A DNA stretch of 64,000 nt, from contig JABANP010000106.1 of NCBI GenBank assembly GCA_013115135.1, positions 62,001 to 126,000 on the forward strand, in the 5' to 3' direction. The stretch comes from Perkinsus olseni. Lineage: Eukaryota > Perkinsozoa > Perkinsida > Perkinsidae. Both the position numbers and the translations under genes were made by a program. Below, piece by piece: positions 39,066-64,000 of the stretch (the stretch's first letter is position 1; every line of letters begins with the position of its first letter). Below the pieces are notes generated by a model. That model worked only from the letters and a program-made list of their open reading frames with translations, did not search any database and had not been told where the DNA came from.

Positions 39066-39270
39066 CTATCTTGAGCGATGCATACACCGTCCATAGTCGG
39101 CACAACCCGTCTCGAGACACGGCGTGGCGTTGGATGGATCGTCTAAGGCCTGCTGGCTACAGTGGTAGAGAAAGCCGGGGAAGGAGTCACCCATGAGCGT
39201 CTGTTTTCCAACATTGCTGCAGACATCGACATTGGCAACCGCAAGGGCAAACAAGTAACTGTGCGAGCTG
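39066..39270 (-). pseudogene. truncated copy of secreted Cys-rich gene (family 2, member 3)
   Basis: Contains CSNVGKQTLMGDSFPGFLYH and the following SQQALDDPSNATPCLETGC nearly as in the 48- and 55-kb members. It then skips the DLSPDCADCF segment and runs into unrelated sequence after ADYGRC. The leader is also broken. Clearly a dead fragment, and close in sequence to the intact members, so a recent duplicate. Confidence 0.75.
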
Positions 39271-41879: not shown

Positions 41880-42582
41880 ATCATGGACTGACCATGACCT
41901 CCCTCAAGAGCATGGTCGCGAATGAGCCGGCTGGCAGATGGAGGTACCAACTGGAGCTTTCCTCAACTGGGCGGGAAAAAGTAGGTCGTACAACAAGCGG
42001 TCGAAGGTAACTGTCCATTCTGACTTACAATCCAAAGCCCCGAGAAAGGTCGCAGCTCTCAGGGTGCTTGAGGACCGCCTCGGTTATTTCTCCTTTCTAT
42101 CGAGAATTATCGAGAATGCAGCGATACCTATTGTTCTAGCTCGGAGCTAGAGGTAGTCAAAGCAGTGATCATACATGTCATGCGATGCAAGACCGAAGCT
42201 CGTCAAGGCCGATGACTTGCCCTCCATCAAGTATCCCAAAGTGAGTAGAATGACGTCTCGCAACGTGAAACTGAGACGTCAGCCAGAGATACCGGTCAGT
42301 TGCATAGCGACCAGCCCGCGAACTAGGAGATGCGGAAACTTCAACTACGAGTCTCAAAAAGATCGAAGCGCTTCCACGCACACAGTCTCGCTGCCATTTG
42401 TCCCAACCTTCTGCGGCTCATTCGAGTCATCCCGCAAGACAAGGTCGCCCGGCATAACCCTGAGACCACCTCGGCGAGTACTGCTGAGAAATCAACATGA
42501 CGGACCGTCTATTTCACCTGTGTCACTCCGAAGCTAGCTGGTTCCATAAGTACGATGCGTACGCACTCAAGTAGAGCAGCAG

Positions 42583-44636
42583 TCAGTAAGAGCACGTCAG
42601 TAATGACATAGTCCTTGATACGCTCGAGGTGCTAAAGGACAGCTGGTCCGTCCAGCTTATTGCAGCCCTCGAAGCTGGTGTATTCCCCCAAGAGTGGAAA
42701 CACTCGAAGGGGGTGTTTATCCATAAAAGTGGCCGATCCCAGCTCGCCCCAATGGCTGGCGTCCCATCTGTTTGGTCACTACTGGTAGCAAGCTGTTCGA
42801 GCGAGTGATCCTCGAACGGCTTGCCTCGTGCCCGCAGATCCGTGACCGCTTGGAGTCTCCAGTGGTCCACGGTTTCTGCAAGGGCAAATCGGTCGACACT
42901 GCCGCCCTGCGCATCATTAACGCGTTCAGGGCTGGCAGGAAGAGAAGTAAACGCGCACCAGTAGCTCTCATCCAGCTCGATGTGCAAAATGCCGCATTTT
43001 AAATGCGTTTCCCTCGGTCAAGCACAGCCACATTCTGGCAACCCTGGCTCGATACGACGTGCCACGATATCTTACCGACATCGTCGAGAGCTATCTCGAG
43101 GGACAGAGTGTGGCTGCTACCTACGGTAGCGATGAGGCCACGGTAGGTTTGGAAAGAGGGGTGCCTCAAAGCAGTGCCTTAGGCGGCCTAAGTTAGGCCC
43201 CTTCCTGTTTTTGCTGAGCACCCTACCACTAGTCGACGTGTTTTCGGGTATGGAGGAAAAAGGCGTAAGCCTCACCCTCTACGCGGACGACACGTCGGTG
43301 GGGGTGTCCGCCGGTACTGGCCCGTCGTTGGTTAAAAGGTGGCGGTCAGCAGAGGCTCTGCTGCTGGCCTGGGCTGCCGATGCTGGAGTGTCCTACGAGC
43401 CGGCCAAGAGCCAGGCGCTCCTGCCTAGGACCATCGGGGACGATGTTTTGTCCCTCGATGGAACACCCGTTGACATCGTCAAGGTTGTCCGGGTGCTTGG
43501 TGTTTTCATCGATCGGCGCTTATCGTTCCAACACCACATCAAGGTTAAATGTGCCGAAGCCAAAGCCAAGTTAGGCAGAGGTCTACTCCATTGGAGTAAC
43601 TGGAGAGCTTCCAGAAATTGGAGTAACTCCAATTTCTGGAAGCTCTCCCCCTACGCTACTATTACGGATTGCGAATTCCTAGGAATTCTGGAAGCAGTCC
43701 GCTGGATTGTGTCGACAGCGGGTGACGAGGCCTGGGAGATCTTCACGGACTCTCAGGCAGTACTCAAGATCCTGTCGTCCCGTGCATCCACGGCCCGGTG
43801 GGATAAGGCGAGACAGATCTATCTGTCCTTGTCCGAAATCCCTGGTAGGGTATCCCTTCGATGGGTACCGGGGCACAGTTCCATCAGTGCCAACGAACGG
43901 GCCGATGAGCTGGCAGCCAAGGGTGCCTCCATGAGGGAAGTCTCTGCGGAGACGGAAATCAGTGTGAGGACTCTTCGGCGGTATCAAGGAGAAGCTGGCC
44001 GTCTGTCACTGCGCAAGTGGTGGTCAGACAAGAGAGCCAGCCTGGGCACTTCTGTCAACGACTTCTTTTACTGCGCTTCACACGCTCGTTTGTGGATCCG
44101 CGGGGAAGTCACGACAGCTAGCAGTGCCGTTGTATTAGGAAGGGCCCCAACCCCAGCCCATCTCTATAGATGCGGGGTGGTCAACTCGCCAGAGTGCGAC
44201 TGTGGGGCGCCGGTGCGGAACACGCGGCACTACCTCCTCTCCTGTCCGCTCCTGCAGCAGGCTAGGAATAGGGTCAAAGGTGGTGTCCCCTACCATTTAT
44301 ATAAACTAATTGTTGATTTGAAGCGACGCAATTGATTTCCTTCAATCAACTTTGTTCGGCTCTCATGCAGTATCTCGATGCTCGCAGGGGCTTATTGTAG
44401 TGCCGGGCAGGCACAACTTTTTTCGCCTCTGTTTTGTACGAGGCCCACCATTGAATACTTGCTATCATAAAAAAATAGATAGCAGCAGCGGGAGCAAGCG
44501 TCAGAGGACTGGCGACTGGGACGTTGACCGCGAGGATGGAGGAAGATGCAGAAGAAGTCGGTCGAAGCCTTAGAGCAGGAAGACGTGATGACTAATTCAT
44601 GTATCGCTCGTTATTAAGGAACGTTTTAATCTGTTT
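42583..44636 (+). mobile_element. 5'-truncated non-LTR retrotransposon (LINE, RT + RNase H)
   Basis: About 2.05 kb flanked by a 14-bp target duplication aagtagagcagcag (42569-42582 and 44637-44650). The paralogous unit B has the same site once (50726-50739), uninterrupted. The element starts inside the reverse transcriptase and lacks the endonuclease region. RT pieces occupy 42,640-43,190 in shifting frames; the YADD box and RNase H domain lie in the 43211-44335 frame. No poly-A tail is seen; the 3' end is AT-rich. Domain order RT, RNase H, Cys/His motif is typical of I- or Jockey-type LINEs. Confidence 0.85.
43211..44335 (+). pseudogene. LINE ORF2 remnant: RT palm, RNase H, Cys/His motif
   Basis: Open frame of about 374 codons. 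It contains the RT catalytic box LYADDTSVG, an RNase H domain (EIFTDSQAVLKIL, then RWVPGHSSISANERADELAA) and a C-terminal Cys/His motif (ECDCGAPVRNTRHYLLSC). Upstream parts of the RT are in other frames, with a stop near 43,195, so the protein is not complete. A 47-nt palindrome (43602-43648) sits between RT and RNase H and probably marks a rearrangement. Confidence 0.8.
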
Positions 44637-44774
44637 AAGTAGAGCAGCAGACCATTTCGTGGAATACCGCCTCTCAGTGCCATTCGGTAGCGGTCAGATC
44701 GACGATGCTTAGCAAGTTGTAATAAAGTACTCGCACACCTGAGATAAGAAAGGGAAATTTGAGACCGTACTTAA

Positions 44775-44846
44775 GGGTGTGTAGCTCAGTGGTAGAGCGG
44801 CTGACTGCAGATCAGCAGGTCCTCGGTTCAAATCAGGGCGCGCCCT
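44775..44846 (+). tRNA. tRNA-Cys(GCA), copy A, T-stem mismatch
   Basis: 72-nt cloverleaf: acceptor GGGTGTG/CGCGCCC, D arm GCTCAGTGGTAGAGC, anticodon arm GCTGA-CTGCAGA-TCAGC with anticodon GCA, and T arm CTCGG-TTCAAAT-CAGGG. The T stem has a G-A mismatch that copy B (CCGGG) lacks, so this copy may be impaired. No run of four T follows closely. Confidence 0.85.
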
Positions 44847-45104
44847 TATACTCCACGAATTGTTTGGCTGCATTCGTGAGTTAGAGTCGTCGCGATCCTG
44901 ATTCCATTATCGCACAACCTGAGTATTCCAAAACCGGTATCATGGAGAGCAGCAAGGAAGCCGTGGCCGCCGAAGGTTCCTCCAGCTTGCTTTGGGAACA
45001 TACGGTATGTTCAACGAGCTGGGTATGTTACATATCGACTTTAGTAACTTCTCTGCCAGCTTACCTCGGCTGCGGCTGTGCGATCACCGCTCACTGGAGA
45101 CATG

Positions 45105-47060
45105 ATCAGCCGTAAGGCTTTTTCATACTGGCCCTATACGATAGTGCCGTCAATGTCGATCTGAGATACGTCGACTCTGCGAACGGTGTGGCCCCACAGC
45201 TGATGTCACCCGAAACAGCGCTGAAGTGACTTACATTACAACGCCTTGTCACCCCCGGGCTTCGGGTTGATGCCGAAGCGCTGTAGTCCGTAGTAGTTGA
45301 CTGAAGCGAACTCACAATCACAAGCAGTGGCACACTCACATCTTGCGGTCCTACCGGAGAGAGAGGCCCTGGCGTAGTTTCCAGGGATCCGTGTTTAGGA
45401 CAAAATTATCGACTTCGAACTTAATCATCGGCCCGGCGATCATGTCATCGAACGCCTCGCGTATTTGTTGCAGCAACAACGTTGCTCGTCATGGGTTGCC
45501 GGTAGTGTCATATACGTGACGAAGAACCAGCATACGTACTAGGCCTTCGTGACGAAGTGGCGGGGCTCGCTCAGCGATGGCGTTTGGTTTAAGGAGTTAG
45601 GTTGCGCGTCGTTGAAGCTAGAACGAAAGAATAATAGCAGTAAAATGCATCACATCAGAATCCATACTAAATCATGCAAAAGTCGTTCGTGGTCTCTCGG
45701 GTTCCAACATGTCCCAGCATTAGTTCGGACCTTTTCCTTTGCTCAGCATTCTCGTCACGGCCAGTTTTCTGCCATCGACTTAGCCGTAAATCGGCGCAGT
45801 CAACTGCAAGACTCGACAACTTCTTGGCTCTGGACAGTGCCACGTATGTTGATCCATTTCCAAATTCTCTCCCTCCTATTTCAACCCGAAACTTGTCCAG
45901 ACTCGACCGGCAGAGTCAGAGAAACTTGAGTTCTCGACATAATTAGCTACCTGATTGACATGTTCTTGCGACAGCTCCCAAGGGAACTACTCAGAATAGT
46001 CTACTCTGGGCATTCGAGAACAGGAGGGAGGCTCTGTATGAGTGGGGAAATCCACGAACATCAGTGGAGTGTCGCCAGTCTCTCGAGCGAGGAACCCAAC
46101 GACGGAGAAGAGGAGATAGCGCTTACGCACCCCTACTAGTGGGTCGCCCCGAAACGATCTTTTGTCCCTCCATAATGGAGCCTCCATTATGGAGGCTGTT
46201 ATTTGATAGCTGCAGTTTTTGCTCTATGGCAAGCTGAAGGACGTTCGTGTCCCAACCGGTCTCCTTTGGCAGTGCCGAATTGGCACACATTGCCAACGCT
46301 GGGAGCTGAAGAGCCCAACAGGGAATTGTTCCCTCCTCCAGCTCAGCAGCACCTGCACCGGTCGCTCGGCGATTTGATCTTCATTCACCAACGGAGTGCA
46401 GCCCAAGTCTCCTTCACCGTGGCCATCTCGAGGTTCTCGAAATACTTCTTTAATTCTCGACAGAATGCCTCAGCATTGCTTCCACGGTTGAAGCGAGTCG
46501 TCATACCACCGTCATTGAATCTGAATCGAAATCATCGCAGGTGGCTCGAGCGACAGCTGCTGCCCTCCAAGTACGAACCGCATGAGCTCTATCGCCTTCC
46601 CCCGCGGCATAGTGTCGAGGAGACACTTGTTCCTACTGGCCTCTGCGGCTGCATAGAACAGCACTGCATGAGGCAAGATCTTCACTGGTATGACAGCGAG
46701 GGTCTGCGGTCGGAACAAGGGCTCTATTGCGTAGCCGACAGCTACTAGCCGTGAGCGGCGGCTCGTCACCCTCCGGATCACCCAGGTTAGCACTCCTCGG
46801 ATCTTACACAGTACACTGTCTCGAGGTCGTCGTCACCATCCACTCGCGGGAAGCGGCACAGCGATCCCCGAGCGTTGCGAGTGGAGTTCTTCGACTGAAA
46901 TTGAGTGACTGGACGAAACACCGACCAGACCCTGAAGTCCATTACGGCTGTGCGGTCGAGGAATTTTTGGACCTCTGAAACGGCTTGTGCACCACAGTGC
47001 CGCTCCACGAAAAGTGTCGCACTTATATCACCAAGCTCGTATCTGCACGTCACCATCGGC
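45105..47060 (-). pseudogene. TruD/PUS7-like fragment, copy A (degenerate)
   Basis: Minus-strand pieces align by eye with the gene at 60.3-63.8 kb. VNYYGLQRFGINP (about 45,250-45,300) matches the conserved NYFGLQRFG motif. A GQYEKALRLIM piece near 45,110-45,140 follows an in-frame TAG. The catalytic-region exon (46,140-46,400) is shifted out of frame, and a small palindrome (ccataatggagcctccattatgg) replaces part of it near 46,175. An inserted about 560 bp (45,545-46,105) separates the halves. Dead copy. Confidence 0.65.
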
Positions 47061-47483
47061 GAGGAAATGCACTGAGTTGGCCTTCAAAAGGCCTCTGACT
47101 TCTCGGACCCGAGTTGTGGATTCAATCCAGTGGATTGTATCAGCCTGGATTTTCCTTCAGTTACAGACTTGCAGGGACGGTCGTTCGAGTTGAGTACAGC
47201 TCAATCGAGTACGTTGCTTACTGCAATGCAGTAACTGCATTGAGTAAATATGCCCACTCCACAATTGAGGAACAAGACAGGCCGACAGCTGGAAAAGTGG
47301 GGACTGCGAGGACAGCCAACCTGCAGATATCGACCGCACTCGTTTACGCATACGAATAGCGCCCCGAACCCTGACGGCTCTACCAACCTCCACCACTGAC
47401 AACAAGTATCTAGTTGGGGAGAGTAGGAGCCGACCGCAGTTAACTCTAGGCCTCTTGGGACCTACGCGCCCAGTAGAGAAGAA

Positions 47484-47534
47484 TGACGGCCATAGCTCGG
47501 CCCGAGCAGAATACGCATGCCTATTGCAGCGTTC
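47484..47534. repeat. conserved ~51-nt element, copy 3
   Basis: tgacggccatagctcggccc...ttgcagcgttc. About 340 nt beyond the stop of the Cys-rich gene at 47874. Nearly identical to copy 5. Confidence 0.75.
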
Positions 47535-47873
47535 TATCACAGCAAATGCTGAAGGCCCTTTTGAAAGGAGACTGACCGAGACTGTTGACGACGACGGACC
47601 CAGGCGGAGGATGCCTGCAGAGGACAATCCGAGGTAGCGCTTACCGCTGGTTGAATCCTATTGATATACAACCGACGAGTAGAGACCGACAAAGAAGCGA
47701 GATATGCAGAAGACAACTTGTGAACGAACACCTTCAACAATCTTCATGTGCCAGAAAGAAGCATCTGGCTCTCTAGGTAAACCGTCACAATGTCTATCCT
47801 TAATGATGGTCATACAGTACGCCTTGTATCAGCCACTTGAGAGAATGCATGATGCAGGCGCACAACTTCTTAC

Positions 47874-48254
47874 TTAAAAACACGTATCACTCTCTTGGGT
47901 GGGGTGAAGGGGGAATCTAGTCAAGCCTGTGCAGGTCAGGAGCTCGCGGTTGCAACCCGAGAAGCGCGAGCAGAGTACACATTGTAGACTTCCAGGAGTA
48001 GAACCACATTCGACCGAACAGTTGCGCTGGACGCACCGGCCATAGTCGGCGAAGCAGTCAGCACAATCAGGGCTTAGATCACAACCCGTCTCGAGACACG
48101 GCGTGGCGTTGGATGGATCGTCTAAGGCCTGCTGGCTACAGTGGTAGAGAAAGCCGGGGAAGGAGTCACCCATGAGCGTCTGTTTCTCAACATTGCTGCA
48201 GACATCACTAGCAACGGCAAGGGCAATAACCACGGCGTTGACGAGGAGGCGCAT
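47874..48254 (-). CDS. secreted Cys-rich protein (family 2, member 4)
   Basis: Intact 126-residue ORF from the ATG at 48254. Signal peptide MRLLVNAVVIALAVAS, then a mature part with 14 Cys: CSNVEKQ, GDSFPGFLYHC, PCLETGC, DCADCF, GRC, NCSVEC, C-x2-C, GC, LLTCTGLT and a terminal SDTCF. The regular Cys spacing suggests a compact disulfide-bonded fold. No enzyme motif. Almost identical to the member at 54926, so both come from a recent duplication of the surrounding unit. Confidence 0.8.
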   Translation of the reverse strand: MRLLVNAVVIALAVASDVCSNVEKQTLMGDSFPGFLYHCSQQALDDPSNATPCLETGCDLSPDCADCFADYGRCVQRNCSVECGSTPGSLQCVLCSRFSGCNRELLTCTGLTRFPLHPTQESDTCF

Positions 48255-49700
48255 TTGTAGATAGATGGGTGCGAAATCAACAGCGAACCTGCGAGAATCA
48301 GATTCTACGACTGACCGAGGAGCGGGGTTCCAAACGTCCGATATGCCTCTGATCGACGGTGGTTGACGAAGGAGAAACGAATAATCTCTTCGATTCGGGC
48401 TGCTTTTCGGCTATGTTACAATCGATTGGCTACAGAGACACGGGGCCAGGTAACACGCATGAACTTTGCGCCACTAGTCGTAGCGATGGAGCCATATTTC
48501 GACCTTCTCCTCGGCCCATCGACAAGGAGGACCATGATAGATTGTTAGACCACAAGGCATTGAGTGTGTGCCCCCTCAGCGGGCAACATATGCTATGCGG
48601 ACACTATGATAAAAGACTCCTCTGGAATGGGCTCCGAGAGACAGGAACGGAGGGAGTGGCTGCGACGTCAGGAATGACGCTAGCACCAGCATGGATCAAG
48701 CTGCATATTTGAGAGTCTCCATTGAGAATGCGATCGTCGTGTGAGACGGCATTCCATCATGAATGGCATTGCATGCTTTGCATCCCCATGAGATCCGGAC
48801 CTTTCAAGAAGAGGTGTGGATGCCGCTTCATCCACGTAGAGGGGTAATAGTGCGCGCGTGCGCGAGGTAGACAGCGACGAGCTACCCGGGTTCTAGTCGC
48901 AACCACTATCAGTGTCCATTCCAGCCGTGTATTCGTGAACTAGAACATAATGGCTTTACCTTGGCGTTCCGCAAAACCTCAGTGAGATCACTAGAGAGTT
49001 TGGAATCTCCGTTAATAATCAGCTTTCCCTTACCCGCCATCGCAACGGATCTCCGTGACGTGGCACCCGCCGTTCCCATGATGAGGGTGTGTTTCAGGCT
49101 GTAGTTTAGCATAGCGCGTACGTAGCCTAAGCCAATCCGATGGCCCTGGTCTCAGCCTGTTGGATTCGTTCTCTTCATTTGCAACGTAGTACGAGGGCAT
49201 GAGGTTGGATATGCTAGATTGTATAGAGCCTTCCTTAATGAATGGCTCCTTTAAGAAGGGTTCTTGAACCTCAAGAAGCTGAAGGTTTAAAGAATCCTTC
49301 TTAAGGTTCTTAAAGGAGGATTTTGGAAGCCGTTAAGGCGAAATTTGGCGGTTTCACGCGTAAGAAGCTCGAGAATGCTTCTTTAAAGAAAATTTTGAAA
49401 TAGGCCCCAGATCAACTTGCGCTGTCGAAGTGACATCTTGAATCTGTATTAGCCCCTCGAATTGCGTCACCAGAGTTGCTGTCATCGACTACATCCAGTA
49501 TCAAACGACAGTACATCGGGTCACGCTCACATCTGTCCCTTCAAGGGACAGATGGCTGACCGATAACGGTGAGCATTTTCAGTGGGTTTGTGTCTCTCTA
49601 ACCTCTCAGAACTTGTGGATCACCACAATTGTTGACTACCGATACCAAGCGCTAATATCCCGTCCTCGTCTGAGTAAGCTGAGAGTAAGTCTGGAATCGA
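48255..49700. other. 5' flank of Cys-rich gene and unit tail; no gene seen
   Basis: Conserved with 55,307-56,930 but without a consistent ORF between copies, so I treat it as non-coding. It contains a gcgcgcgtgcgcg stretch near 48,850 and a foldback region at 49,236-49,330. Confidence 0.4.
49236..49330. repeat. foldback (imperfect inverted repeat)
   Basis: tcctttaagaagggttcttg near the left end and ttcttaaaggagga near the right end can pair; internal ccttcttaagg is itself palindromic. Absent from the matching place in unit B, where other sequence lies. Confidence 0.5.
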
Positions 49701-50863
49701 CCGCTCCGACGTTCGCAGGACAGCGTTCGGATTTTAATTTCGGAAGAGGCTCTGAGGACGACAACACCTTCATGTTCATCGAACACGATGGTGTTATCGC
49801 TGTTGCCATTCGAGCTAGGCGTAACATCCAGGCGATTCCGCGACAGCAAGGTGAGGACACGAAAGACATAACGCAGCTTCCACTGCGGGTGAAACGAACG
49901 ATGACGGACACTAAACTGTTTTTGAATAATACTTGCACTATCAAGGACCGTCCATGACCTCTCTCAAGAGCATAGTACCAAATGAAGCGGCTGGCAGATA
50001 GAACTACCGAAAAGCGCGGGATGGCTTCCGCCGCCAAAATTCCGTTCAAGACAAGCTAATCTTCTTTGCCTTGTATATTGCATTGCATTGTTTGTATTGG
50101 TTCCATTGCTTTCCTCAACTGCGCGGGAAAAAGTAGGTCGTACAACGAGTGGTCTTAGATAACTGTCAATTCTTGCTCTGAACCCCGACGTCCGAGAAAA
50201 GGTCGCAGCTTTCAGGGTTCTTGAGGACCGATTCGGTTATTTCTCCTCTCTGTAAAGAATTTTCGAGAATGCAGCGATACCTGTTGTTCTAGTTAGGAGC
50301 GAGAGGTAGTCATCGCAGCGACCATACGTTTCATACGGTGCGGGACCGAGGTTCGCTAAGGTTGACGAGTTGCCCTCTATCAAGTGCCCCCAAGTAGGTA
50401 GGATGACGTCGTGTAATGTGTAACTGAGACGTCAATCATAGCTACTGGTCAGCTGCATAGCGACCAGCCGGCGAACCAGGACATCACGTGCAGAAGCTTC
50501 TACTCGGAGTCCCGGGAAATCGAAGCCCTCCCACACACCCAGCTTCGCTGTCATTCGTCCCAACCTGCTGCGGCTCATTGGAGCCGTCGCGCAAGACAAG
50601 GTCGCCCGGCATAACGCTGAGACCACCTCGGCGAATACGACTGAGGAATCAACATGACGGACCCTCTATTTCACCTGTCTCACTCTGGAGCTAGCTGGTT
50701 CCATAAGTACGATTGGTACGCACTCAAGTAGAGCAGCAGAAAATTCCGTGGGATACCGCCTCTCAGTGCCATTCGGTAGCGGTCCGACCCACGATTCTTA
50801 GCAAGTTGCAATAAAATATTCGCCCAACTGAGACAAGTAAGGGAAATTAAAAGACAATTCCAC

Positions 50864-50935
50864 GGGTGTGTAGCTCAGTGGTAGAGCGGCTGACTGCAGA
50901 TCAGCAGGTCCTCGGTTCAAATCCGGGCGCGCCCT
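50864..50935 (+). tRNA. tRNA-Cys(GCA), copy B
   Basis: Same 72-nt cloverleaf as copy A but with a fully paired T stem (CTCGG/CCGGG). Anticodon GCA. No CCA encoded, as expected for a eukaryote. No T4 terminator within about 40 nt, so transcription termination is unclear. Confidence 0.9.
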
Positions 50936-51244
50936 TGTACTCGACGCATCGATTGATTACATTCGTGCGTTAGAGTCCTTCTGGTGGACTTCTTCAAGAC
51001 TATCAAGTGCTCTGGAGTCGTCGCGATCCTGACTCCACTGTCGCACAACCTGAGTATTTTAAGACCGGTACCATGGAGAGTAGAAAGGAACCCATGGCCG
51101 CCGACCGCCTCTCCAGGGCAGGGCTTGCTTTGGGAACATACGGTATATTCAACGAGCTGGGCATGTCACATATCGAGCTTGGTCGCTTCTCTGCCGGCTT
51201 ACCTCGGCTGCGGGTGTGCGATCACTGCTCACTGGAGACATGAT

Positions 51245-52690
51245 TAGCCGTAAGGCTTTTTCATACTGGCCCGATATGATAGCGCCGCCAATGTCGACCT
51301 GACATAAGTCGATTCTGCGAACGGTGTAGCCCCACGGCTAATGGCGCCCGAAGCAGCCTTGAAAGTGACTAACGTTACAATGCCTTGTCACCTCATGGTT
51401 CGGATTGATGCCGAAGCGCTGTAGTCTATAGTAGTTGATGAAATCACTGCTATCAATGGAGGACAGCGCTTCCACGACACCGCGTTTCGCACCTCTAATC
51501 CGTACTCGAAAACAATTACTGAAGCGAACTCACAATCACAAGCAGAGGCACACTCACATCGTGCACTCCTACCCGAGAGACCTACCCGAGGCCCTGGCGT
51601 AGTTTCGTTGGACCCGTGTTAACGACAAAATTATCGACTTCACACTTTTTCATCGGCCCGGCGCTGATGTCATCGAACGCCTCGCGTATTTGTTGCTCGT
51701 CATGGGTTGCCGGTAGTGTCATATACGTGACGAAAGATCCAGCATACGTATTGTAGCCTCGGATGAGGAGGAGGTAGCGCTCACGCGCTCTTACTGGTAG
51801 GTCACTCCGAAACGATCTTTTGTCCCTCCATAATGGAGACTCTTATTGGGTGGCTGCAGTTTTTGCTCTATGGCACGCTGCAAGGCGCTGGTGTCCCAAC
51901 CGGTCTTTTTCAGCACAAATTTCCAACGACGGGAGTTGAAGAGCCCAGCGGGAGAGTGTTTCCTTTTCCAGCTCAGCAGCACCTGTACCGGTTGCTGAGC
52001 GATTTTATGTTCATTCACCAACTGAGCGCAGCGCAAGCCACTTACAGTAGTCCTCTTCGCAGTGGCCATCTCGAGGTTCTCGAAATGCGTTTTCAATTTT
52101 TGACAAAACACCTCTCCATTGCTTCCACGGTTGAGTCGAATCGTCATACCACCGTCGTTGAATCTGAATCGAAATCATCGCCGGTGGCTCAAGCGACAGC
52201 TGCTACCCTCTTAGGACGAACCGCATGAGTTCTATCGCCTTCTCCCGTGGCATAGTGTCGAGGAGACACTTGTTCCTACTGCCCTCTGCAGCTGCATAAA
52301 ACAGCACTTCATGAGACAAGATCTTCATTGGTATCACAGCGAGGGTATTCGGAACAAGGGTCGGGACAAGGGCTCTATTGCGTAGCCGTGAGCGGCGGCG
52401 CGTCACCTTCCGGATCATCCAGGCTATCGTTCCTCGGATCTTGTACACTATCTCGAGATCGTCGTCACCATCAACCCGCGGGAAGCGGCACACCAGCCCC
52501 CGAGCATTGCGAGTGTAGTTCTTCGACTGACATTGAGAGACTGGACGGAACACGGGCCTGACCCTAAAGTCCATTACGGCTGTGCGGTGGAGGAACTTTT
52601 GGACCTCTGAAACAGCATGTGCACCACAATGCCGCTCCAAGAAGGGTGCCGCACCCATATCACCAAGCTCGTACCTGCATGACACTAGCG
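51245..52690 (-). pseudogene. TruD/PUS7-like fragment, copy B
   Basis: Better preserved than copy A. In transcription order: a block at 52,203-52,685 (LSHEVLFYAAAEGSRNKCLL, matching EHRVFYVAENRG of the 60-kb gene); the catalytic exon 51,791-52,010 with GGTKDRFGVTYQ, which keeps the catalytic Asp; then FINYYRLQRFGINP near 51,400; then GGAIISGQYEKALRLIM near 51,260. The N-terminal GITQF exon and the C-terminal IPR...WN part are missing, and frames are interrupted. Probably dead, though the catalytic exon is intact. Confidence 0.65.
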
Positions 52691-52744
52691 GTGAGGAAAT
52701 GCACAGCGTTGGCTTTTAGAAGGGTTCTGAAATCTTGGACCCGA

Positions 52745-54051
52745 GTCCCTCAGCGTCCGAGGCCCCAGCCTTAGATCTTGAAACAGTCGAGTTTTCCTAC
52801 CCTTCCTCGAATGCCATGAGTAGACCGTGCGTCCTATCAACTGCCTTGAATGTCGTTCGTGAATCAATTGCAGGAGCCGAGCTGACGCGAAGGTGCACAG
52901 CTATCGGTGGGATCACGCTTCAGTTCCTTCTACCTACCTCAAATGGTCGGCACACCGTCTCTCTACCGCCGTCCAAGACTCAGAAACCGGTTCAACGCGT
53001 AGGCGTACCACTTTACCATCCATCCCTACTTTTCTCACCTCCCAATCAGTCATCTACACAAAACCCTTCACATGCTGCTTGAGGCTACGACACCCATTCA
53101 GTCACCCGGCCTCTGAGAAATCCTCCGCTCCCTTTTGGACTGATGTATTCCTGTATGCCAACTCGGTCACTGAACCTTCGGAATTCCTCACGATTCGTCT
53201 CCTCTGCAGTGAGCCGCCGATGTATGCCCAAGGCCCGTACGAATTCTCCTCCGAGCCCATCCTGAAATACCCATCACCGAGTTTATGCGCAACCACATTG
53301 CCTCACTGCTACTCCCAACGAAGGGCGTTCCCACCTTTTCTCCTATTGGTCTCGGAGCCTTTTCCATGCGAGATAGGGTGTCGAGCGACCGTTTTCCCCG
53401 AGAGGCTAGAGAGGGGGTTAGCGCCGTCCACATTTCTTTCGCTGATGGCTTGAGCCCCACAACAAGCATCCTTCTGCAAATGAGTTTCGTGAGGGCTACT
53501 TGTGAGTTTGTGAGTTTTGTGTGTAACTTGACAACCAGTCCTACGATGAGGTCAGCCACCTGGCGTCGCTGATTCCTTCTCAACTAAAACGCAACAACTG
53601 AGATCGGCGACCTGATTAGATTGATCTGACAATGATATCTCAATCGGATGATCATGGGGGAGATAATCTGAAGCATCGACAAGTGCTGAGGGCCATAGCT
53701 TGGCCCGAGCAAAATACGCATGCCTATGGCAGCATTCGGTCTTGACCATCAAATCTCATACACACGATTCGTGCGGCACGAACAAGAGAACAGTGGAGGC
53801 GCCTCACAGGCAGAGAAGAGGCGGAGCGGAACGTATTTCTACTCGAGCTGGATCATCAGCCCCTCCATGCATGGTGCTATGGAAAGATAGACGCAATATA
53901 GCAACACTCCTGCTCGAACTGAACATAATAGCTAACATACAGCAATTCCGTTTAGTCGTTCAAATATCCTACAAAACGTGCCAGGGACCCTTGCCGACGT
54001 CTACTGGTGGTTCGCTCTTGGCCGCTGGAAGAAGAATAAAGGCGAAAGAAG
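52745..54051. other. sequence present in unit B only
   Basis: About 1.3 kb with no counterpart in unit A, where gacccgagt joins almost directly to tggattcaatccag. It has overlapping open frames on both strands (52893-53453 plus, 53188-53583 minus) but no motif, and ends near a lone copy of the 51-nt element (53687). No terminal repeats recognised. It may be an insertion here or a deletion in A. Confidence 0.45.
53687..53737. repeat. conserved ~51-nt element, copy 4 (orphan)
   Basis: tgagggccatagcttggccc...atggcagcattc. Most divergent copy and the only one without a Cys-rich gene just upstream on the minus strand; it suggests a lost gene copy. Confidence 0.65.
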
Positions 54052-54535
54052 GATGGATTCAGTCCAGTGAATTGTATCAGATAGTCAAGAAAGAGAATTA
54101 GAGGGCGAAACCACGAAAGGCCTCAGTCACGGCAGCGCACAAGGAGCACTTGGAAGTGCTCCAATAGCGAACTAACTATTGGAAGCAATTTTCAACTGCG
54201 ATTTTTCGAAGTTTCCTTCAATTACAGATCGGCAGGAATGGTCGTTCGGATTGAGTCCTGCTCAATTGAGTATATTACTCACTGCGTTGAGGGATATCTG
54301 CCCACTCCACAATTGAGGAACAAGACAGGCTGATGAATGGAAAAGTGAGGACTGCAAGAACAGCCAACTTGCAGATATCGACCACACTCGTGTACGCATA
54401 CGAATAGCGTCTCGAAAACTGGCGGCTCTACCAACCTCCACCACTGATAACAAATATCTAGTTGGGGTGAGGAAGTAGAAACCGATCGCAGTCAACTCTA
54501 GGCCTCTTGGGACCTACGCGCCCAGTAAAAAAGAA

Positions 54536-54586
54536 TGACGGCCATAGCTCGGCCCGAGCAGAATACGCATGCCTGTTGCAGCGTTC
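54536..54586. repeat. conserved ~51-nt element, copy 5
   Basis: Almost identical to copy 3, about 340 nt beyond the stop of the Cys-rich gene at 54926. Confidence 0.75.
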
Positions 54587-54925
54587 TATCACAGCAAATG
54601 CTGAAGGCCCTTTTGAAAGGAGACTGACCGAGACTGTTGACGACGACGGACCCAGGCGGAGGATGCCCGCAGAGGACAATCCGAGGTAGCGCTTACCGCT
54701 GGTTGAACCCTATAGATGTACAACCGACGAGTAGAGACCGACAAAGAAGCGAGATATGCAGAAGACAACTTGTGAACGAACACCTTCAACAATCTTTATG
54801 TGCCAGAAAGAAGCATCTGGCTCTCTAGGTAAACCGTCACAGTGTCTATCCTTTATGATGGTCGTACAGTACGCCTTGTATCAGCCACTTAAGAGAATGC
54901 ATGATGCAGGCGCACAACTTCTCAC

Positions 54926-55306
54926 TTAAAAACACGTATCACTCTCTTGGGTGGGGTGAAGGGGGAATCTTGTCAAGCCTGTGCAGGTCAGGAGCTCGCG
55001 GTTGCAACCCGAGAAGCGCGAGCAGAGTACACATTGTAGACTACCAGGAGTAGAGCCACATTCGACCGAACAGTTGCGCTGGATGCACCGGCCGTAGTCG
55101 GCGAAGCAGTCGGCACAATCGGGGCTCAGATCACAACCCGTCTCGAGACACGGCGTGGCGTTGGATGGATCGTCTAAGGCCTGCTGGCTACAGTGGTAGA
55201 GAAAGCCGGGGAAGAAGTCACCCATGAGCGTCTGTTTCTCAACATTGCTGCAGACATCACTAGCAACGGCAAGGGCAATAACCACGGCGTTGACGAGGAG
55301 GCGCAT
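54926..55306 (-). CDS. secreted Cys-rich protein (family 2, member 5)
   Basis: 126-residue ORF from the ATG at 55306, nearly identical to member 4 (47874-48254); visible differences include GDFFPGFL for GDSFPGFL and CIQRNC for CVQRNC. The same leader and Cys pattern are kept, and the frame is intact, so selection or very recent origin keeps it coding. Flanks match unit A on both sides. Confidence 0.8.
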   Translation of the reverse strand: MRLLVNAVVIALAVASDVCSNVEKQTLMGDFFPGFLYHCSQQALDDPSNATPCLETGCDLSPDCADCFADYGRCIQRNCSVECGSTPGSLQCVLCSRFSGCNRELLTCTGLTRFPLHPTQESDTCF

Positions 55307-56930: not shown

Positions 56931-57268
56931 AGGACAGCGTTCGGATCGTAATTTCGGAAGAGGCTCTGAGGACGACAACACCTTCATGCTCATCGAACAC
57001 GATGGTGTTATCGCTGCTGCCATTCGAGCTAGGCGTAACATCCAGGCGATTCCGCGACAGCGAGAACGCGTACAGGCGTACACGAAAGACATAACGCAGC
57101 TTCCACTGTGGGTGAAACGAACGATGACGGACGCTATAATGTTTTCGAACAGTACTTGCTCTATCAAGGACAGTCCATGACCTCTCTCAAGAGCATAGTA
57201 CCGAATGAAACTGTCGGCAGATAGAACTACCAAAAAGCGCGGGATGGCTTCCGCCTCCAAAATTCCGT

Positions 57269-57556
57269 TCAAGACAAGCTAACCCACTTTGCTTCGTATT
57301 GCATTGTTTGTATTGATTCCATTGCTTTCCTCAACTGCGCGGGAAAAAGTAGGTCGTACAACGAGTGGTCGAAGGTAACTGTCAATTCTGGCTTTGAATC
57401 CCGACGTCCGAAAAAGGTCGCAGCTTTCTCGGTAACCAAATCCGACAGATGGGGCTGTGCGACGCCCCCGGATAGGTCCGCAGAGCGTTCGCACTCTTCT
57501 AGCTCGCTGAACAGGGTGGTGATAGCTTTGTCGGTGAGCCCACAAAGCGTTCTCAT
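57269..57556 (-). CDS. hypothetical protein, 95 residues
   Basis: ATG at 57556 (MRTLCGLTDKAITTLFSELE). The C-terminal half (FDHSLYDLLFPAQLRKAMES) is read from the block that recurs at about 41,950, 50,110 and 60,150, but only here is the frame open throughout. No leader or family. It may be the last exon of a gene lost from the other units. Confidence 0.4.
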   Translation of the reverse strand: MRTLCGLTDKAITTLFSELEECERSADLSGGVAQPHLSDLVTEKAATFFGRRDSKPELTVTFDHSLYDLLFPAQLRKAMESIQTMQYEAKWVSLS

Positions 57557-58544
57557 GGGGGGCGAGTGATGTTGTCTAACCGCCCCACACACCGTAGTCG
57601 CCAGAGAGCCATCGTCGATCATCTGAAACTCAACCTACTGCAGAGATGGGTCGCTGTCGGACGGGACCGGGGATGCAATATAAGATGAGGAGAGGTAGGG
57701 CCGGAGCGCAAAGCGTAACTCAGACGACTTGACAATAAACGTAAGCCTGAGCAAGGAATCTGTTGACGACCACGCGAGAACAGCTGAAGATAGTCGCCAT
57801 GGTCGGTCTAGGAAGGCCAATCTCGCTCTAAGAGGAGGACTGGACGTCGACGAGGGGTGGCGGATCTCTACGAGGGGAGCTGGGGCGCCTTCTGGGCTGA
57901 TCCCGGAAGAATTGGAGAAGCTGGGACGCTGCTCGTCCCTAATGAAGCCAGTCATTGGACCTGCTTTACAAGATCAAGTTCACTCCTGGCGCCCTCGAAT
58001 GAGGAAGAGAGCACTAACGATAGGGCCATAGTGGTCGGAAAGTGACTCCGCGATTGACGAACGAAACAGGCCGGCACGAGGCGATACACCGAATAATGGG
58101 AACGGCAAGAAAACTCTAACTCGCAGAGATCGACCGAACTCATGTGCATGCATGTACACAGGCCCGGCGAAGCCCGACGGTCTTACTCGCCTCCACCATC
58201 GTTAACAATCATCTTGTTGGCTCAACTAAGTTAAGAGAAAGTACAACGATGTTCGGTTGGGCTACCCAACTTGGGTACGATGCACGCTCCCCGACTGCCG
58301 AACACGATACCATATTAAGCTCAAAAGCGTTGAAAAAATCTGAATCTTAGTACCCCCTCAGTATACCAGCTACTATTCTTGGCGAAATAATAGACTATAA
58401 ATAGGGATGCCCGCATAGACGAATGGGGTAAAGGCAGGGCGTGCGGACCACGTACGGGCTTAAGAGCATCCTCCATCTCCTACGGAGGCGACCGTGCTCA
58501 ACTCTAGTTCCGGCCTTGAGTGACCCATGTACCGCGCAAAAAAG
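57557..58544. other. stretch unique to unit C, no gene seen
   Basis: Open frames on both strands (57,635-57,955 minus; 57,729-58,031 plus) without motifs. Nothing recognised. Confidence 0.3.
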
Positions 58545-58597
58545 GAGACGGCCATAGCTCTGCCCGAGCAGAAGACGCATGCCTGTTGCAGCGTTGG
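58545..58597. repeat. conserved ~51-nt element, copy 6
   Basis: gacggccatagctctgcccg...ttgcagcgttgg, about 190 nt beyond the stop of the Cys-rich gene at 58766. Confidence 0.7.
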
Positions 58598-58765
58598 ATC
58601 AGATGAAATGCTGGATGTTCTTGTGAAAGAGGACTGACTGAGACCGATTGCCGTAACTGACCCAGGTGGACGAGAACTAAAGTCGACCATCCCTAGTAGC
58701 GCTTACCGCTGGTCATCGCCGACACATAGCCGCCGACCATAAGCGAAAGCCCTCCTGTGAGCTTA

Positions 58766-59164
58766 TCACCCTTGATAATGGGCGTACGATTCACACGTGT
58801 CACTCTCTTGCGTAGCGGGAGGGGGCAGTTTAGTCAGGCCTGTGCAGCTCAGGACCCCGGAGTTGCACTCATAGAGTTGCAAGCAGTCTACACAGGTTTT
58901 ATTTTCAGGAAGAGACCCACACTGAATCGAGCAACAAAGCGTGAAGCACTCGGCATATTTGTTGAAGCAGGCGGCACAATCCAAGTCTATGTCACAACCA
59001 TCTATGAGACACACTCCGACGTCCCACGGATCCTCCTTAATACAGTGGTAGAGGAAGCCGGGGAATGAGTCACCCGCGAGTTTGAGCCTGTCAGCTTCGG
59101 TGCAGGGACCTGGCTTCGGGGTAACTGCAGAAGCAATAAGGACGACGTTGACGAGGAGGCGCAT
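58766..59164 (-). CDS. secreted Cys-rich protein (family 2, member 6)
   Basis: 132-residue ORF from the ATG at 59164: leader MRLLVNVVLIASAV, then GDSFPGFLYHC, CLIDGCDIDLDCAACF, C-x2-C, LSCTGLTKL and SDTCE. The C terminus is eight residues longer than members 4 and 5 because the stop is displaced. Clearly homologous but diverged, so older than the 4/5 duplication. The leader is more conserved than much of the mature part. Confidence 0.78.
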   Translation of the reverse strand: MRLLVNVVLIASAVTPKPGPCTEADRLKLAGDSFPGFLYHCIKEDPWDVGVCLIDGCDIDLDCAACFNKYAECFTLCCSIQCGSLPENKTCVDCLQLYECNSGVLSCTGLTKLPPPATQESDTCESYAHYQG

Positions 59165-60299
59165 TTTCAGATTGAACGGTTTAGATCCAAGGAACGAGCC
59201 TGCTAGAATCGGATTCTGCAATGAATGAAGAGTGGGGATACTGAGGTCCGATTTGTCCAACTCGCCGCTTGCAGCGGAGGGGAGGCGAAAAGAAGATCTC
59301 CCATTCGGCCTGCTTTCAGCTCTAAAATCATCAATCGCGTCTCACTGTGCCTGTGGAGTCGCACGCATGAACTTTGCGCCACTGGGTATTGCAAGGGAGC
59401 GACATTCTGGCCTTTTCCTGGGCTCATCAACGAGAAGGCGAATGATAGATGGTCAGGGTACAGGACACAGATCCCGTGGCACCTCAAAAGAACAGCATCT
59501 ACTACAAATGGTAAGACGTCCATAGAAAGGGTACCACCCAGAAACACCCGCGGTAAAGGTGGCACACCGCCTTTCACAACTGGTAGAGGGAAGCATGGGC
59601 CATGCTGCATTGTTGAGGGTCTTTAATGAGACAGTCAGGCACTCGCTTGAATTGAAGTCAATGTGACTAGAGAGGTGTCCGTTCATCTTCGTATAGGAGT
59701 CATGCGCGCGCGTTCGAGGGAGACAGCGAAGAGCTATCAGGGTCCCAGAAGCAGAGAGAAACAGCACCGAGCCCAGCCCTCTATTTGTTTAGTTAAACAG
59801 CGCTCGGATCATCTCCGCGTTGATTGAATACGAGGTTGTCCGGGTTGCTGTGATTCGAGGTAGGCGTACCGCCAAGGCGCCTTCTGGGAGACAATATGGG
59901 TGTGCCCACTAACGCCCACTAAAAAGTCAACACCATCCCCAACTCAGTGTGAAACGAGCGTTGACAGAAACTGTGATGGTGAAACATGCAATTGTCAATT
60001 TCCTCCCTCCACAATTTCTCTGAGCAGCATTGTAGCGTACGATCCCCGTGGGAGATGGAACTGAGGATGAGAGAACATACAACTGATGCCAGGTCCTTCA
60101 CTTACGTCAAGCAAGAGATTGTTTTTATCTGGCAGCCGATCACCGTTCGATTCCTCCGCTGCCAAAAGCACTGTAGGGCGCACTATGAGACGTCTCGGGA
60201 TCGTAGTGAGTTTTTGGTTGAATCCTAGGTCAGAGAAACTATATCTCGCATCCAGCCATGAGCCTGGACGAATCTCCCCACGCTCTTCGGAATCCTTTA
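59165..60299. other. flank of Cys-rich gene and start of unit D
   Basis: 59,200-59,750 matches the 5' flanks of members 4 and 5 (cgcatgaactttgcgccact block). 59,840-60,000 resembles the block at 49,790-49,940 (gattcgaggtaggcgta against cattcgagctaggcgta). 60,000-60,299 is the 3' flank of the PUS7-type gene, with the LRKAMES-like remnant. No intact gene seen. Confidence 0.4.
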
Positions 60300-63200
60300 T
60301 CAAATCCGAGTATCTGTCATGAACCGTCCGTCATACCGAGCTGCCACAGCACCCCTGCCTAGGGCGTACAGCTCCTCAACGTTCAGTCCCGCATTCAAAA
60401 TCCTGCATTCGCCTTCCACCTGCTCTCCGAGCTGCGGCAGCCGAACATCGTGGATGGTGTACCTTTCCCAATACAAGCAGTACCAACAGGAAGACGGTTG
60501 GAATGGAGAGGCCTCACCTCTTTGCGGCCTCTTCGGACCGAATCAGACGTAGCTCCCGACTTCTCGGCTCTTTCACCAGATCGCCGATCACAACACGGAG
60601 GCCACCTTCCCGAATACGACTGAGACGTGATCTCTGCAGAGACGGCCCTGCGCAGATACGGTACCGGCTGGCCAATCGATTCCACAGACAAGACACATAG
60701 GCCGCTGCTAAAAGGTGCCACAGCGTCCTCGGTATCAGCATCATCGCCCGGCGGCCTCTATCACGGCATGTGGCCAACTCTGACAGCATAGTCTGGTACC
60801 TGCAGTGTATAGTCCGCTACGGAATATCCCTTTCGAAGTCCTACAGCGTGATGTCACGGTTGTCACGAGTGCTTGCTTTACTCAAGGCTTTCGTCGCTCT
60901 CTCCGCATCACCAGTCTCGAGCCATTCTCGGCGTATCTACGGCCACCGATAACCTATCTGGATACTAAAAACCCCACCCCTCTCGCTTACTTCAGCGTCC
61001 TCGGAGACGTCATCTGCCAAGGGCCGCAAATAAGATCGGACTGCTCCGCGAAAATCTCGAGTAATGATAGCACCACCAGTGCGGACCTAAGCACTGCCGC
61101 AGTTGCTCCGGATACGTGTATGCTAGAGCTAGAGTGGAAGGCACGAGTTCTCGTACTGCGGAACGACGTCACGCTTCTGGAATTGAGGAAATGGCAGCCC
61201 AGATTCCGAATAACCGGGGGGCGGCTGGTCCTACATGGCTGGACTGCCCGTCACCCTTATCCCAACCGAATCTCTGTAGTCCAAAGTAGTTGATAAAACC
61301 GGTGTCTCGCAAGGACCCAACTTCCGAGCTCGACCCTGGTTCAATTCCGCGCAGGCGGATTCGGAAGCAATTACTGAGCCGGAGAAGACACTCTGGGAAT
61401 CCCGCAGTGAGGGCGTCATCACCCGTAGAGTGTTCCGCATTTGAACTTCTTCTCAGGTGACTGATGGAGCTGGAAGTTGTCGAGAGATGCCCATCCACGA
61501 GATGCATCTCCACAGGCCTCCTTCAAAGCTGACCTTATCTCCTCCGGACTATGTGTTGCTGGTATGGTCACATACCTGCTAGGCGTAAGTGGAGCAGTAG
61601 GATTCGAAAACCGGCAATTCTGCGATTTTAAACGAGAGAAGCGATAATCGCTCCGCGGCGCTGAGCCAGAGGCGCAAAGGACCGTCAGTCGGCATTTAGA
61701 TGAGCTCTCGTCTCACTCTTTGCTTGCTAAGGAGAAGTTGTATGATCAGATTCGCAGAATTCGCAAGCTGTATCCAATTATTCGTAGAGAAGAGCGTCGA
61801 GACTGGCTCATCCATACGAGCAGGACCCTCGTTACTGGTAGGTTAGTCCCCGTTTATCCTTAAGCCCTGCATAATGTATGGATTCCCGAGGCAAACGCAG
61901 CTTCTTCTCCAGCAGGGCAAGGACTCTGGGTGTATCGAGATTCGCCTTATGAAGCACGCATCTCCACCGCTTCCCTCCGTGAAGTCCCCTCTGGGAGTAC
62001 ACTCGCGACCAGGACACCCGAACTGGTGTCCCATCTCTCTGCAACAACAGGCAGCCCTCCACAATTGAAAGCGGCCCGGCATCAAGCCAACCTCAACTGC
62101 GTCGGCGCTGACTATCTCAAATGTCAAGTCGCGCCAGTACTTGGCGACCTCCTCAGAGAAGCTGGCGAGGTTCGCCACGACGTCGTGGCCAGATGATCGG
62201 AAGGTGAACTCAACCTCCCTGTGACCATACCTACCGATTCATCGGATGCAGAAAAGGTGATTCACCACGACACTCCACACAGTAATATCAATACCCAGCA
62301 CGAGACTGGATCGAGGGCAGCTCAGCGGTGACTTCCAAATCATTCGAGATTCACGTTTTGAGGTGGCATCCAACGCATCCGAAATCCATTAGCGCCTTGT
62401 AGATGATAAGCTATGTCTTACCCGCAGGTGATGAGGCCGATGAGGCGTTGAGCGTCGCTCAGGTTCATATGCTGCAGCAGTAGTTTCTTGAACCCTCGAT
62501 TCTCGGCAACGTAGAAGACTCGGTGCTCTCTTCCTTCGAACTTGCACGGTATGTTCACTAGCATCTGAACAACAGGAAACACAGTAAAAGACCATAGAAG
62601 GCCCAAAGACGCCCAAGCAGGAGGGCACAACATCCGACCGGAGAGCCACGGGTCACTTTTCCCGCGAACCGCTGGTCAGGATTCGTCTACGCGGAATGGG
62701 CCTCCGATGTACACCTCTAGTGAGCCTCTTCCATCGATACTTACATGCTTAGTCGCCGCGACGATAGCCCCACGGAGACGATAGGCATCTTCATCGCCCA
62801 TTATGCCTTCGCCTAGTTTGGCCCGCACAACACCGGCCTCATGTGACCTAGACTGAGCCAACAGCAGGGAGGAACAATTAGCATGATTATCGTTGTAACC
62901 CTCCCGACTCTCACTGCAGCCTTGTGAAGGAAGGCATCCAGTCGCGTGATTGCGGCATCACCCAATCTATCCCTTATTAGCTCACGAGCGTCTGCTGCAT
63001 TCAATGCAAAACTAAAAACGCTGAGCTTGATCGATGCAAGAGAAGGAAACCAACAGCGGCGTGCCTACCCTTCCCAATGTGCATTCTCCACGGCTTTCGT
63101 TTTATCCGAGTCCTCCAGCGCTGGAAATGACAACTCCTCTGAGGGGTCGATGTCCAACCTGGCAAGATTCAAAAGAGGTCGAAGCTCGAAAGATACGCCA

Positions 63201-63766
63201 ATCACCCGACATAAACCCTACTCATTCTTAGCCTCCGCAGAGATGCTTCTCTCCACTTCGGCCCACCAAGCCAGCAAGGGCTCGTCTGCCAAGCGGGCCA
63301 CAGAGAAGTCTGTGCCCACTTCTCGTACTTCCCAGTCCTTTATCTGCAGGCCCACGAGGTAGACAAAAACTCGGAATCGTGACCGGGCGGAACCACCCAC
63401 GAAGAGAGAGACCGAGGTACGCGGCGGTTCAGTCGAAAATGTCCTCACCTTGACTCGGAGTTCACCGCCAAGCGATAGGGGATTGACGAACTGGGTGATC
63501 CCTACTGCCTCCGGGGGCGGCTGCTTCACCGTGTACTCCGCCACAGGGTCGTATCGACTGCGATTCGCCTGACAACAGCGTAGGATTGAACGGAAATGTC
63601 TTTGGTGACCGATTTGTGGAACTGGAAGAGAGAACCGTTGCCCTGTGAGCTCTGATACGGAACGATTACGCGTTACGCGCGTAGAATCTAGGGAGTTTGG
63701 GGAAGGTGCAGAAGATCCGCCAGCTGAAATTCCCAAGAGTCTGAAGTCCCAGGTCAATACTTTCAT
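60300..63766 (-). CDS. TruD/PUS7-type tRNA pseudouridine synthase
   Basis: Multi-exon gene with PUS7 landmarks in order: AVGITQFV, then GELRVKIKDWEVREVG across an about 105-nt intron; inserted helical exons about 63,140-62,780; FEGREHRVFYVAENRG (about 62,500); the catalytic exon at about 61,850-62,000 with IHYAGLKDKRGLTYQ (catalytic Asp in KD); KKFKCGTLYG-NCFRIRLRG across a 49-nt intron; GFINYFGLQRFG (about 61,290); LIPRTLWHLLAAAY, a likely SCLWNRLAS helix and VIGDLV (60,540-60,740); and a stop at 60300 after a 55-nt intron. The family isomerises uridine to pseudouridine in tRNA and other RNAs. Most introns are 49-63 nt. The start (63766 or nearby) and exons around 60,800-61,170 are provisional. 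It is the only complete copy in the window. Confidence 0.8.
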
Positions 63767-64000
63767 CCCCACCCTATGGGGTTGCCTTTCAGTGCTGCTA
63801 ACCACCACTAAACGTAACCCACCCGCAATTCAGCCCGAGTATGAGAGCGACCAATGCAACGTCCCTTCTGTACGCAGACGCGCGTTGGCCCGACGGAAGT
63901 GTGAACAATAGCCCGTTTTTATCAGGCTTCTTATCGCATCATGGCAACGAGCTTTTCATAGCATCAAGCTTTCAACAACGGCGAACAGAAATGATTGTAT
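63767..64000. other. right end of window, nothing recognised
   Basis: Should hold the promoter of the PUS7-type gene; no motif or other feature seen. Confidence 0.3.

What the first reader, a model, noticed from the sequence alone, without database searches (positions are those of the whole stretch)
41880..63770. Degenerate tandem array linking tRNA-Cys, a PUS7-type gene and a secreted Cys-rich gene
Landmarks recur in the same order at about 42-49.7, 49.7-56.9, 56.9-59.8 and 59.8-63.8 kb: a shared leading block, tRNA-Cys (two units), a TruD/PUS7-like gene or fragment, a 51-nt element, and a secreted Cys-rich gene. Across units the Cys-rich ORF stays intact in three of three cases, while the PUS7 part is intact only once. 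This suggests the unit is amplified for the secreted protein and the other parts decay as passengers.
Basis: partly seen in the sequence, partly recalled or inferred. Interest (0 to 1): 0.75.

Follow-up and report, generated by a model that had tools for sequence, protein, structure and literature searches.

The report
Shared downstream motif of secreted genes

Summary
Observation: mostly real. The window lies in a 61.5-Mb, probably Perkinsus genome. Self-comparison shows collinear diagonals for two units and a truncated third; the fourth resembles them only as protein. 'Leading block' and PUS7 part are one minus-strand, multi-exon PUS7/TruD-like gene, with tRNA-Cys antisense between exons of copy B. 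A secreted Cys-rich gene follows three copies. PUS7-A is a pseudogene, split by a retrotransposon.
Interpretation: partly supported. dN/dS between A and B is 0.08 (Cys-rich) and 0.46 (PUS7). But Cys-rich matches (38 places, 11 contigs) share only two contigs with PUS7-like matches, so the unit is local.
New: the 51-nt element holds TTTTGCTCGGGCCGAGCNATGGCCGT, 74 sites genome-wide against 0 for the reversed control (relaxed: 152 against 8). Of 102 sites compared, 30 lie within 1 kb downstream, same strand, of matches to four unrelated families (Cys-rich, subtilase, an unnamed secreted family, aspartic protease); none lies upstream, one (a broken locus) on the opposite strand. Sixty-six sites remain unexamined. 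Best reading: a 3'-UTR cis element shared by secreted-protein genes; transcription was not testable here.

The parts
47484..47534 (-). 51-nt element A with the core motif, ~340 nt downstream of the Cys-rich stop
54536..54586 (-). 51-nt element B
58547..58595 (-). 51-nt element C
53687..53737 (-). orphan 51-nt element; no Cys-rich match directly in front of it
36183..36235 (-). 51-nt element behind the Cys-rich gene at 36.5-36.9 kb
33660..33711 (-). 51-nt element behind the Cys-rich copy at 34.05-34.4 kb
47874..48254 (-). Cys-rich gene A (126 aa, 14 Cys; hydrophobic leader read by eye)
54926..55306 (-). Cys-rich gene B (98% identical to A)
58766..59164 (-). Cys-rich gene C (132 aa, 51-52% identical to A)
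36511..36897 (-). further Cys-rich gene outside the stated interval (128 aa)
34051..34401 (-). Cys-rich copy whose frame has no ATG
39072..39257 (-). truncated Cys-rich copy
59998..63766 (-). PUS7/TruD-like gene D, multi-exon, catalytic-type stretch GLKDKRGLTYQ ending at 61835
   Evidence: splice sites not verified
49947..53053 (-). PUS7-like gene B; the matched exon pieces have no in-frame stop
41892..46361 (-). PUS7-like pseudogene A: first exon not found, stops and indels, split by the retrotransposon-type insertion
57173..57413 (-). PUS7-like remnant C: only the last exons found
42583..44636 (+). retrotransposon-type insertion with RNase H domain; TSD AAGTAGAGCAGCAG at 42569-42582 and 44637-44650
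44774..44847 (+). tRNA-Cys copy A (60.3 Rfam bits against 68 for copy B); one inner base differs, in the T stem by my reading
50864..50935 (+). tRNA-Cys copy B, antisense between two exon pieces of PUS7-B

Best explanation
Shown: a local segmental duplication placed [PUS7-like gene -> Cys-rich secreted gene] side by side on one strand; PUS7 copies A and C decayed while the Cys-rich copies A and B stayed under purifying selection. Shown: behind 11 Cys-rich genes, 221-375 nt past the match end and on the same strand, stands a ~26-nt motif (TTTTGCTCGGGCCGAGCNATGGCCGT) that recurs genome-wide behind other, unrelated, mostly secreted-type gene families. Inferred: the motif lies in the 3' UTR of these mRNAs and is bound by an RNA-binding factor (or acts in 3'-end formation), so that secreted-protein genes of different origin are regulated together, for instance in stability or stage of expression. 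The step from position to RNA-level function is not shown.
For: Motif with up to 3 mismatches: 74 sites, 0 for the reversed pattern; relaxed form 152 against 8, 74 of the 100 listed being perfect. Of 102 sites compared (the 100 listed plus 2), 30 lie 213-860 nt downstream on the same strand of family matches: 11 of 38 Cys-rich places, 5 of 120 subtilase matches, 12 of 62 matches of an unnamed secreted family, 2 of 125 aspartic-protease matches; about 0.3 expected in all; none upstream; one opposite-strand site, at a broken Cys-rich locus. Seven sites fetched from the list before their neighbours were known (L090-L096; L090 and L091 nearly alike) each have, by my reading of the frames, an ORF or exon ending about 180-500 nt before the core. 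With one copy per family (n=8) the flanks are only 36% and 29% identical, the core 89%, so no longer repeat is shared. Between units A and B, stop-to-element noncoding DNA differs at 10 of 338 sites, DNA upstream of the ATG at 33 of 445 and DNA past the element at 38 of 287: the conserved zone ends with the element.
Against: 72 of the 102 sites are near no match of these families; 6 of the 72 were looked at (4 with an ORF in front, 1 orphan, 1 broken locus) and 66 were not. Core identity across families is partly by construction, since most sites were found with the motif. No transcript data: the motif may lie outside the mRNA. The C290/C47/C892 members of the same Cys-rich family and C334:54860 and 79890 lack it, as do 115 of 120 subtilase and 123 of 125 aspartic-protease matches, so it is not needed for secretion. 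L094-L096 were cut only ~50-70 nt past the core, so their downstream side was not seen. Low A/B divergence of the 3' region could partly be gene conversion; against synonymous sites (7 of ~89) the difference is only p = 0.06. 'Secreted' rests on leaders read by eye and on family type, not on a predictor; for the aspartic protease and L094 the N-terminus was not seen. Clustered paralogs are not independent.
Confidence: 0.55

Rival explanations
1. The motif works as DNA: the 13-bp odd-centred dyad GCTCGG-G-CCGAGC is a protein-binding site (transcription terminator, insulator or 3' enhancer) behind these genes.
For: Dyad symmetry; in the 26 imperfect listed sites positions C7, G10, C11, G15, C16, G20, G21 and C23 of the 23-nt pattern never change; one site (C4:132882) changes T6 and A14 together, keeping the dyad, though it may be a chance site.
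Against: The T run and ATGGCC give the motif a direction, and 30 family-linked sites follow the gene's strand against 1 opposite, at a broken locus. As RNA the core can also fold (GGCC-GAGCNAU-GGCC at -7.1, or GCUC/GAGC at -6.1 to -8.2 kcal/mol depending on the variant), so symmetry does not decide.
Confidence: 0.25
2. One reading: a composite unit is amplified because of the Cys-rich gene, and PUS7, tRNA and element are passengers.
For: Cys-rich dN/dS 0.08 against 0.46 for PUS7 between A and B.
Against: Cys-rich and PUS7-like matches share only 2 contigs; the element stands also behind unrelated genes, so it is not a mere passenger.
Confidence: 0.1
3. The conserved downstream stretch is a recombination or gene-conversion anchor that keeps clustered family members alike.
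For: Sharp-edged ~800-nt tract of 95-99% identity between A and B running from the ATG to just past the element; dS 0.086 in its CDS against 0.209 in PUS7.
Against: Unrelated families on many contigs share only the ~26-nt core, with near-random flanks; conversion does not explain that.
Confidence: 0.07
4. The element is an independent small noncoding RNA gene scattered among secreted genes.
For: Size and conservation fit; the window holds an orphan copy at 53687-53737.
Against: Constant strand and similar distance to the preceding gene; no Rfam match at E 0.5 in window 30000-64000 besides tRNA and a palindrome.
Confidence: 0.05

Closest known systems
16-mer in the 3' UTR of Trypanosoma brucei VSG mRNAs (PMC9778586, passages seen)
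   Same: A short conserved sequence behind genes for surface or secreted proteins of a parasite, while the coding regions diverge
   Different: The VSG motif serves one gene family and has a reported role (needed for m6A in the poly(A) tail); here unrelated families share the motif, its position in the mRNA and its role are not shown, and the sequence is different
PUS7/TruD pseudouridine synthases (Pfam PF01142)
   Same: Exon order, Pfam match and GxKD-type stretch (GLKDKRGLTYQ, GGTKDRFGVTYQ; that this is the catalytic motif is recalled)
   Different: A multi-exon subfamily with several partial copies, beside a 503-aa single-frame form on C45 and C665
[quoted passage not shown]
   Same: Very many tRNA genes in a Perkinsus genome
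   Different: Here tRNA-Cys with at least 194 matches, many in tandem arrays of ~150-360 bp period; 'tRNA-Cys' occurs 0 times in that paper's main text
Birth-and-death evolution of tandem gene families (recalled)
   Same: Local duplication, decay of some copies, purifying selection on others
   Different: Nothing essential

Membership tests
PUS7/TruD (PF01142) | Match above the Pfam cut-off | tested here: met
   Two places in the window, 34.0 and 30.1 bits against 27, each read with one stop inside the six-frame match, which runs past an exon end; an open piece of PUS7-B alone 28.1 bits
PUS7/TruD (PF01142) | Complete catalytic domain in one transcript | tested here: inconclusive
   Exon pieces of D and B follow the domain in order; splicing not verifiable; A and C are broken
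tRNA-Cys | Cloverleaf with GCA anticodon | tested here: met
   ARAGORN and Rfam
Retrotransposon-type insertion | Target-site duplication and element-encoded domain | tested here: met
   14-bp TSD, RNase H domain, absent from unit B; a reverse-transcriptase domain was not searched for
3'-UTR regulatory element | Same strand and similar distance behind unrelated genes | tested here: met
   30 of 102 compared sites, 4 families; flanks differ between families; 66 sites unexamined
3'-UTR regulatory element | Lies inside the transcript and changes mRNA fate | not testable with these tools
   No transcript data
Known RNA families (Rfam 15) | Covariance-model match of the 51-nt element | tested here: not met
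   No match at E 0.5 in window 30000-64000 other than tRNA and a palindrome
Known protein family for the Cys-rich gene | Pfam, database or fold match | tested here: not met
   0 Pfam families, 3 candidates but no homolog at 1e-3, no PDB fold match at 1e-3 from a weak model, pLDDT 61

The most novel reading that the evidence does not exclude
Perkinsus tags a set of unrelated secreted-protein genes (Cys-rich proteins, some subtilases and aspartic proteases, an unnamed secreted family and others) with one common 3' motif: a post-transcriptional regulon for part of its secretome.
Probability: 0.4. Interest if true: 0.8.

Novelty: new variant of a known kind. Interest (0 to 1): 0.58.

Why it matters
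The duplication itself is ordinary. The motif, if it marks mRNAs, would give a sequence handle to list coordinately expressed secreted proteins of a shellfish parasite, and would show one cis signal carried by unrelated gene families. It makes a directly testable prediction for RNA-seq.

Tried and rejected
Second coding exon: the 51-nt element looked at first like a second exon of the Cys-rich gene; dropped because its variable positions show no triplet pattern by eye, copy A has a stop in the frame that is open in copy B, and an in-element ATG is lost in the 33-kb copy. Known RNA: no Rfam match. Spliced leader: no convincing likeness to the dinoflagellate spliced leader (recalled, compared by eye). 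Common hairpin 20-30 nt after the core: seen in some copies, not in others, not claimed. Variant element in the C290/C47 clade: none found. Motif in prokaryote genomes: 0 exact matches, of little weight. Structure of the Cys-rich protein: helical model with pLDDT 61 from 4 sequences, 12 fold matches up to E 10, none at 1e-3, not used. Literature: the listings (titles and abstract starts of an open-licence library) show no paper on such a motif in Perkinsus; passages seen in PMC3706591 and PMC9778586; no paper was read whole.

Control caveats: the kinase control (0 sites near 143 matches) is weak, since many kinase matches are single exons, perhaps far from the stop codon. In one search only the matches on contigs with a listed site were typed for subtilases (14 of 120), aspartic proteases (23 of 125) and kinases (6 of 143); the others cannot lie near a listed site. 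52 of the 152 relaxed sites are not listed; 2 of these were taken, the rest were not compared.

Full report
Where the window lies. The window is contig C9:62001-126000 of a 61.48-Mb, 968-contig genome. Two cytochrome c1 exon pieces match PDB chains 9fq7/9fzl at 48 of 49 and 68 of 70 residues. That these chains come from Perkinsus marinus is recalled; no call named the organism, and one search found no paper for the entry. I read the genome as a Perkinsus species.

The duplication. Unit A carries a 2054-nt insertion with an RNase H domain, flanked by a 14-bp target-site duplication. Its tRNA-Cys differs from copy B by one inner base, in the T stem by my reading.

Selection. Cys-rich A/B: 9 changes in 378 nt, dN 0.007, dS 0.086. 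PUS7 A/B: dN 0.096, dS 0.209 over 256 codons; copy A has two in-register stops and frame-breaking gaps. But Cys-rich matches (38 places on 11 contigs) and TruD matches (22 on 15 contigs) share only C9 and C334, so the composite unit is local. A truncated and an ATG-less Cys-rich copy stand at 39.1 and 34.05 kb.

Sliding identity. Between A and B an ~800-nt tract, from the ATG to just past the 51-nt element, is 95-99% identical in 100-column bins; the bins around it are mostly 76-93%. The noncoding stretch from stop to element differs at 10 of 338 positions, the DNA before the ATG at 33 of 445 (p = 0.007), the DNA past the element at 38 of 287 (p = 1e-6), synonymous sites at 7 of about 89 (p = 0.06). 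Constraint on the 3' region, gene conversion, or both can give this.

The element. A DNA search with 96 nt found 16 copies: 11 behind a Cys-rich gene on the same strand, 1 at a broken Cys-rich locus in the opposite orientation, 1 orphan in the window, 2 about 310 nt behind a subtilase stop (L083, L084), and 1 about 360 nt behind a 212-aa ORF that overlaps an ORF with a hydrophobic leader (L081; which of the two is the gene is unclear). The core motif TTYTGCTCGGGCNRAGCTRTGGCCSTC has 74 sites with up to 3 mismatches and none for the reversed pattern; TTTGCTCGGGCCGAGCNNTGGCC has 152 against 8, and 74 of the 100 listed are perfect.

Which genes. With 102 sites (the 100 listed of 152, plus 2), matches of four families have a site within 1 kb downstream on the same strand: Cys-rich 11 of 38 places, subtilase 5 of 120, the L093-type secreted family 12 of 62, aspartic protease 2 of 125; 0 of 143 kinase matches and 0 of 22 TruD matches; no site lies within 1 kb upstream of a match, and one lies on the opposite strand, at a broken Cys-rich locus. 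Expected by chance: 0.03, 0.10, 0.05, 0.10; clustered paralogs are not independent, so the number of unrelated families matters more. Seven sites were fetched from the list before their neighbours were known: two nearly alike subtilase pieces (L090, L091), the L093 gene itself (leader MAKPVATWFILATLALMTTSAQ), a small Cys-rich ORF that needs an assumed intron (L092), an aspartic protease (L096; Pfam 47.3 bits), and two multi-exon genes that I read as GH18-like and GNAT-like but that gave no Pfam match (L094, L095). Choosing the gene among several open frames was done by eye.

Conservation. Taking one copy per family (8), the core from -4 to +24 is 89% identical, the flanks 36% and 29%. The core figure is partly by construction, since most sites were found with the motif; the flanks show that no longer repeat is shared. 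As RNA the core can form GGCC-GAGCNAU-GGCC (-7.1 kcal/mol) or GCUC/GAGC hairpins (-6.1 to -8.2, by variant); as DNA it is a 13-bp dyad. The data do not choose.

Who lacks it. Members of the same Cys-rich family on C290, C47 and C892, and two on C334, have no copy, and no other common downstream element was found in them. The intact subtilase in the window has none either.

Mechanism. Shown: position, strand, distance and recurrence. Inferred: that the motif lies in the 3' UTR and acts through RNA. The nearest parallel is the VSG 16-mer of T. brucei (PMC9778586, passages), which it resembles in kind, not in sequence or shown role.

Verdict. The part it treated as a passenger, the 51-nt element, is the noteworthy one.

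Noticed in passing
G000 contigs C296, C928, C142, C112, C938, C108, C892 (L089:5013-6096): At least 194 matches to the tRNA-Cys region in this genome, many in head-to-tail arrays of about 150-360 bp period; ARAGORN on one stretch called 4 tRNA-Cys(GCA), one ACA and one tRNA-Tyr-like copy. Other tRNA matches, isotype not determined, are arrayed too (C778, C823, C607).
   Followed up: partly
window 29610-30068 and 27845-28304: Another Cys-rich ORF with leader (152 aa; PAN-like match below the Pfam cut-off) and a 94% identical stretch of DNA beside it, whose frame was not checked.
   Followed up: no
window 39909-41267: Intact subtilase gene with a leader on the plus strand; no copy of the motif behind it.
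   Followed up: partly
window 43602-43648: Near-perfect 47-nt palindrome inside the retrotransposon-type insertion, which gives mir-3202 matches below that family's gathering score.
   Followed up: no
L032 (C645:112832-113188 and neighbours): The same Cys-rich domain occurs twice in a 515-aa ORF with Thr-rich linkers; neighbouring open frames reach 762 codons.
   Followed up: no
G000: Large protease families: 120 subtilase and 125 aspartic-protease matches (some are pieces of one gene); 5 and 2 have a listed motif site behind them.
   Followed up: partly
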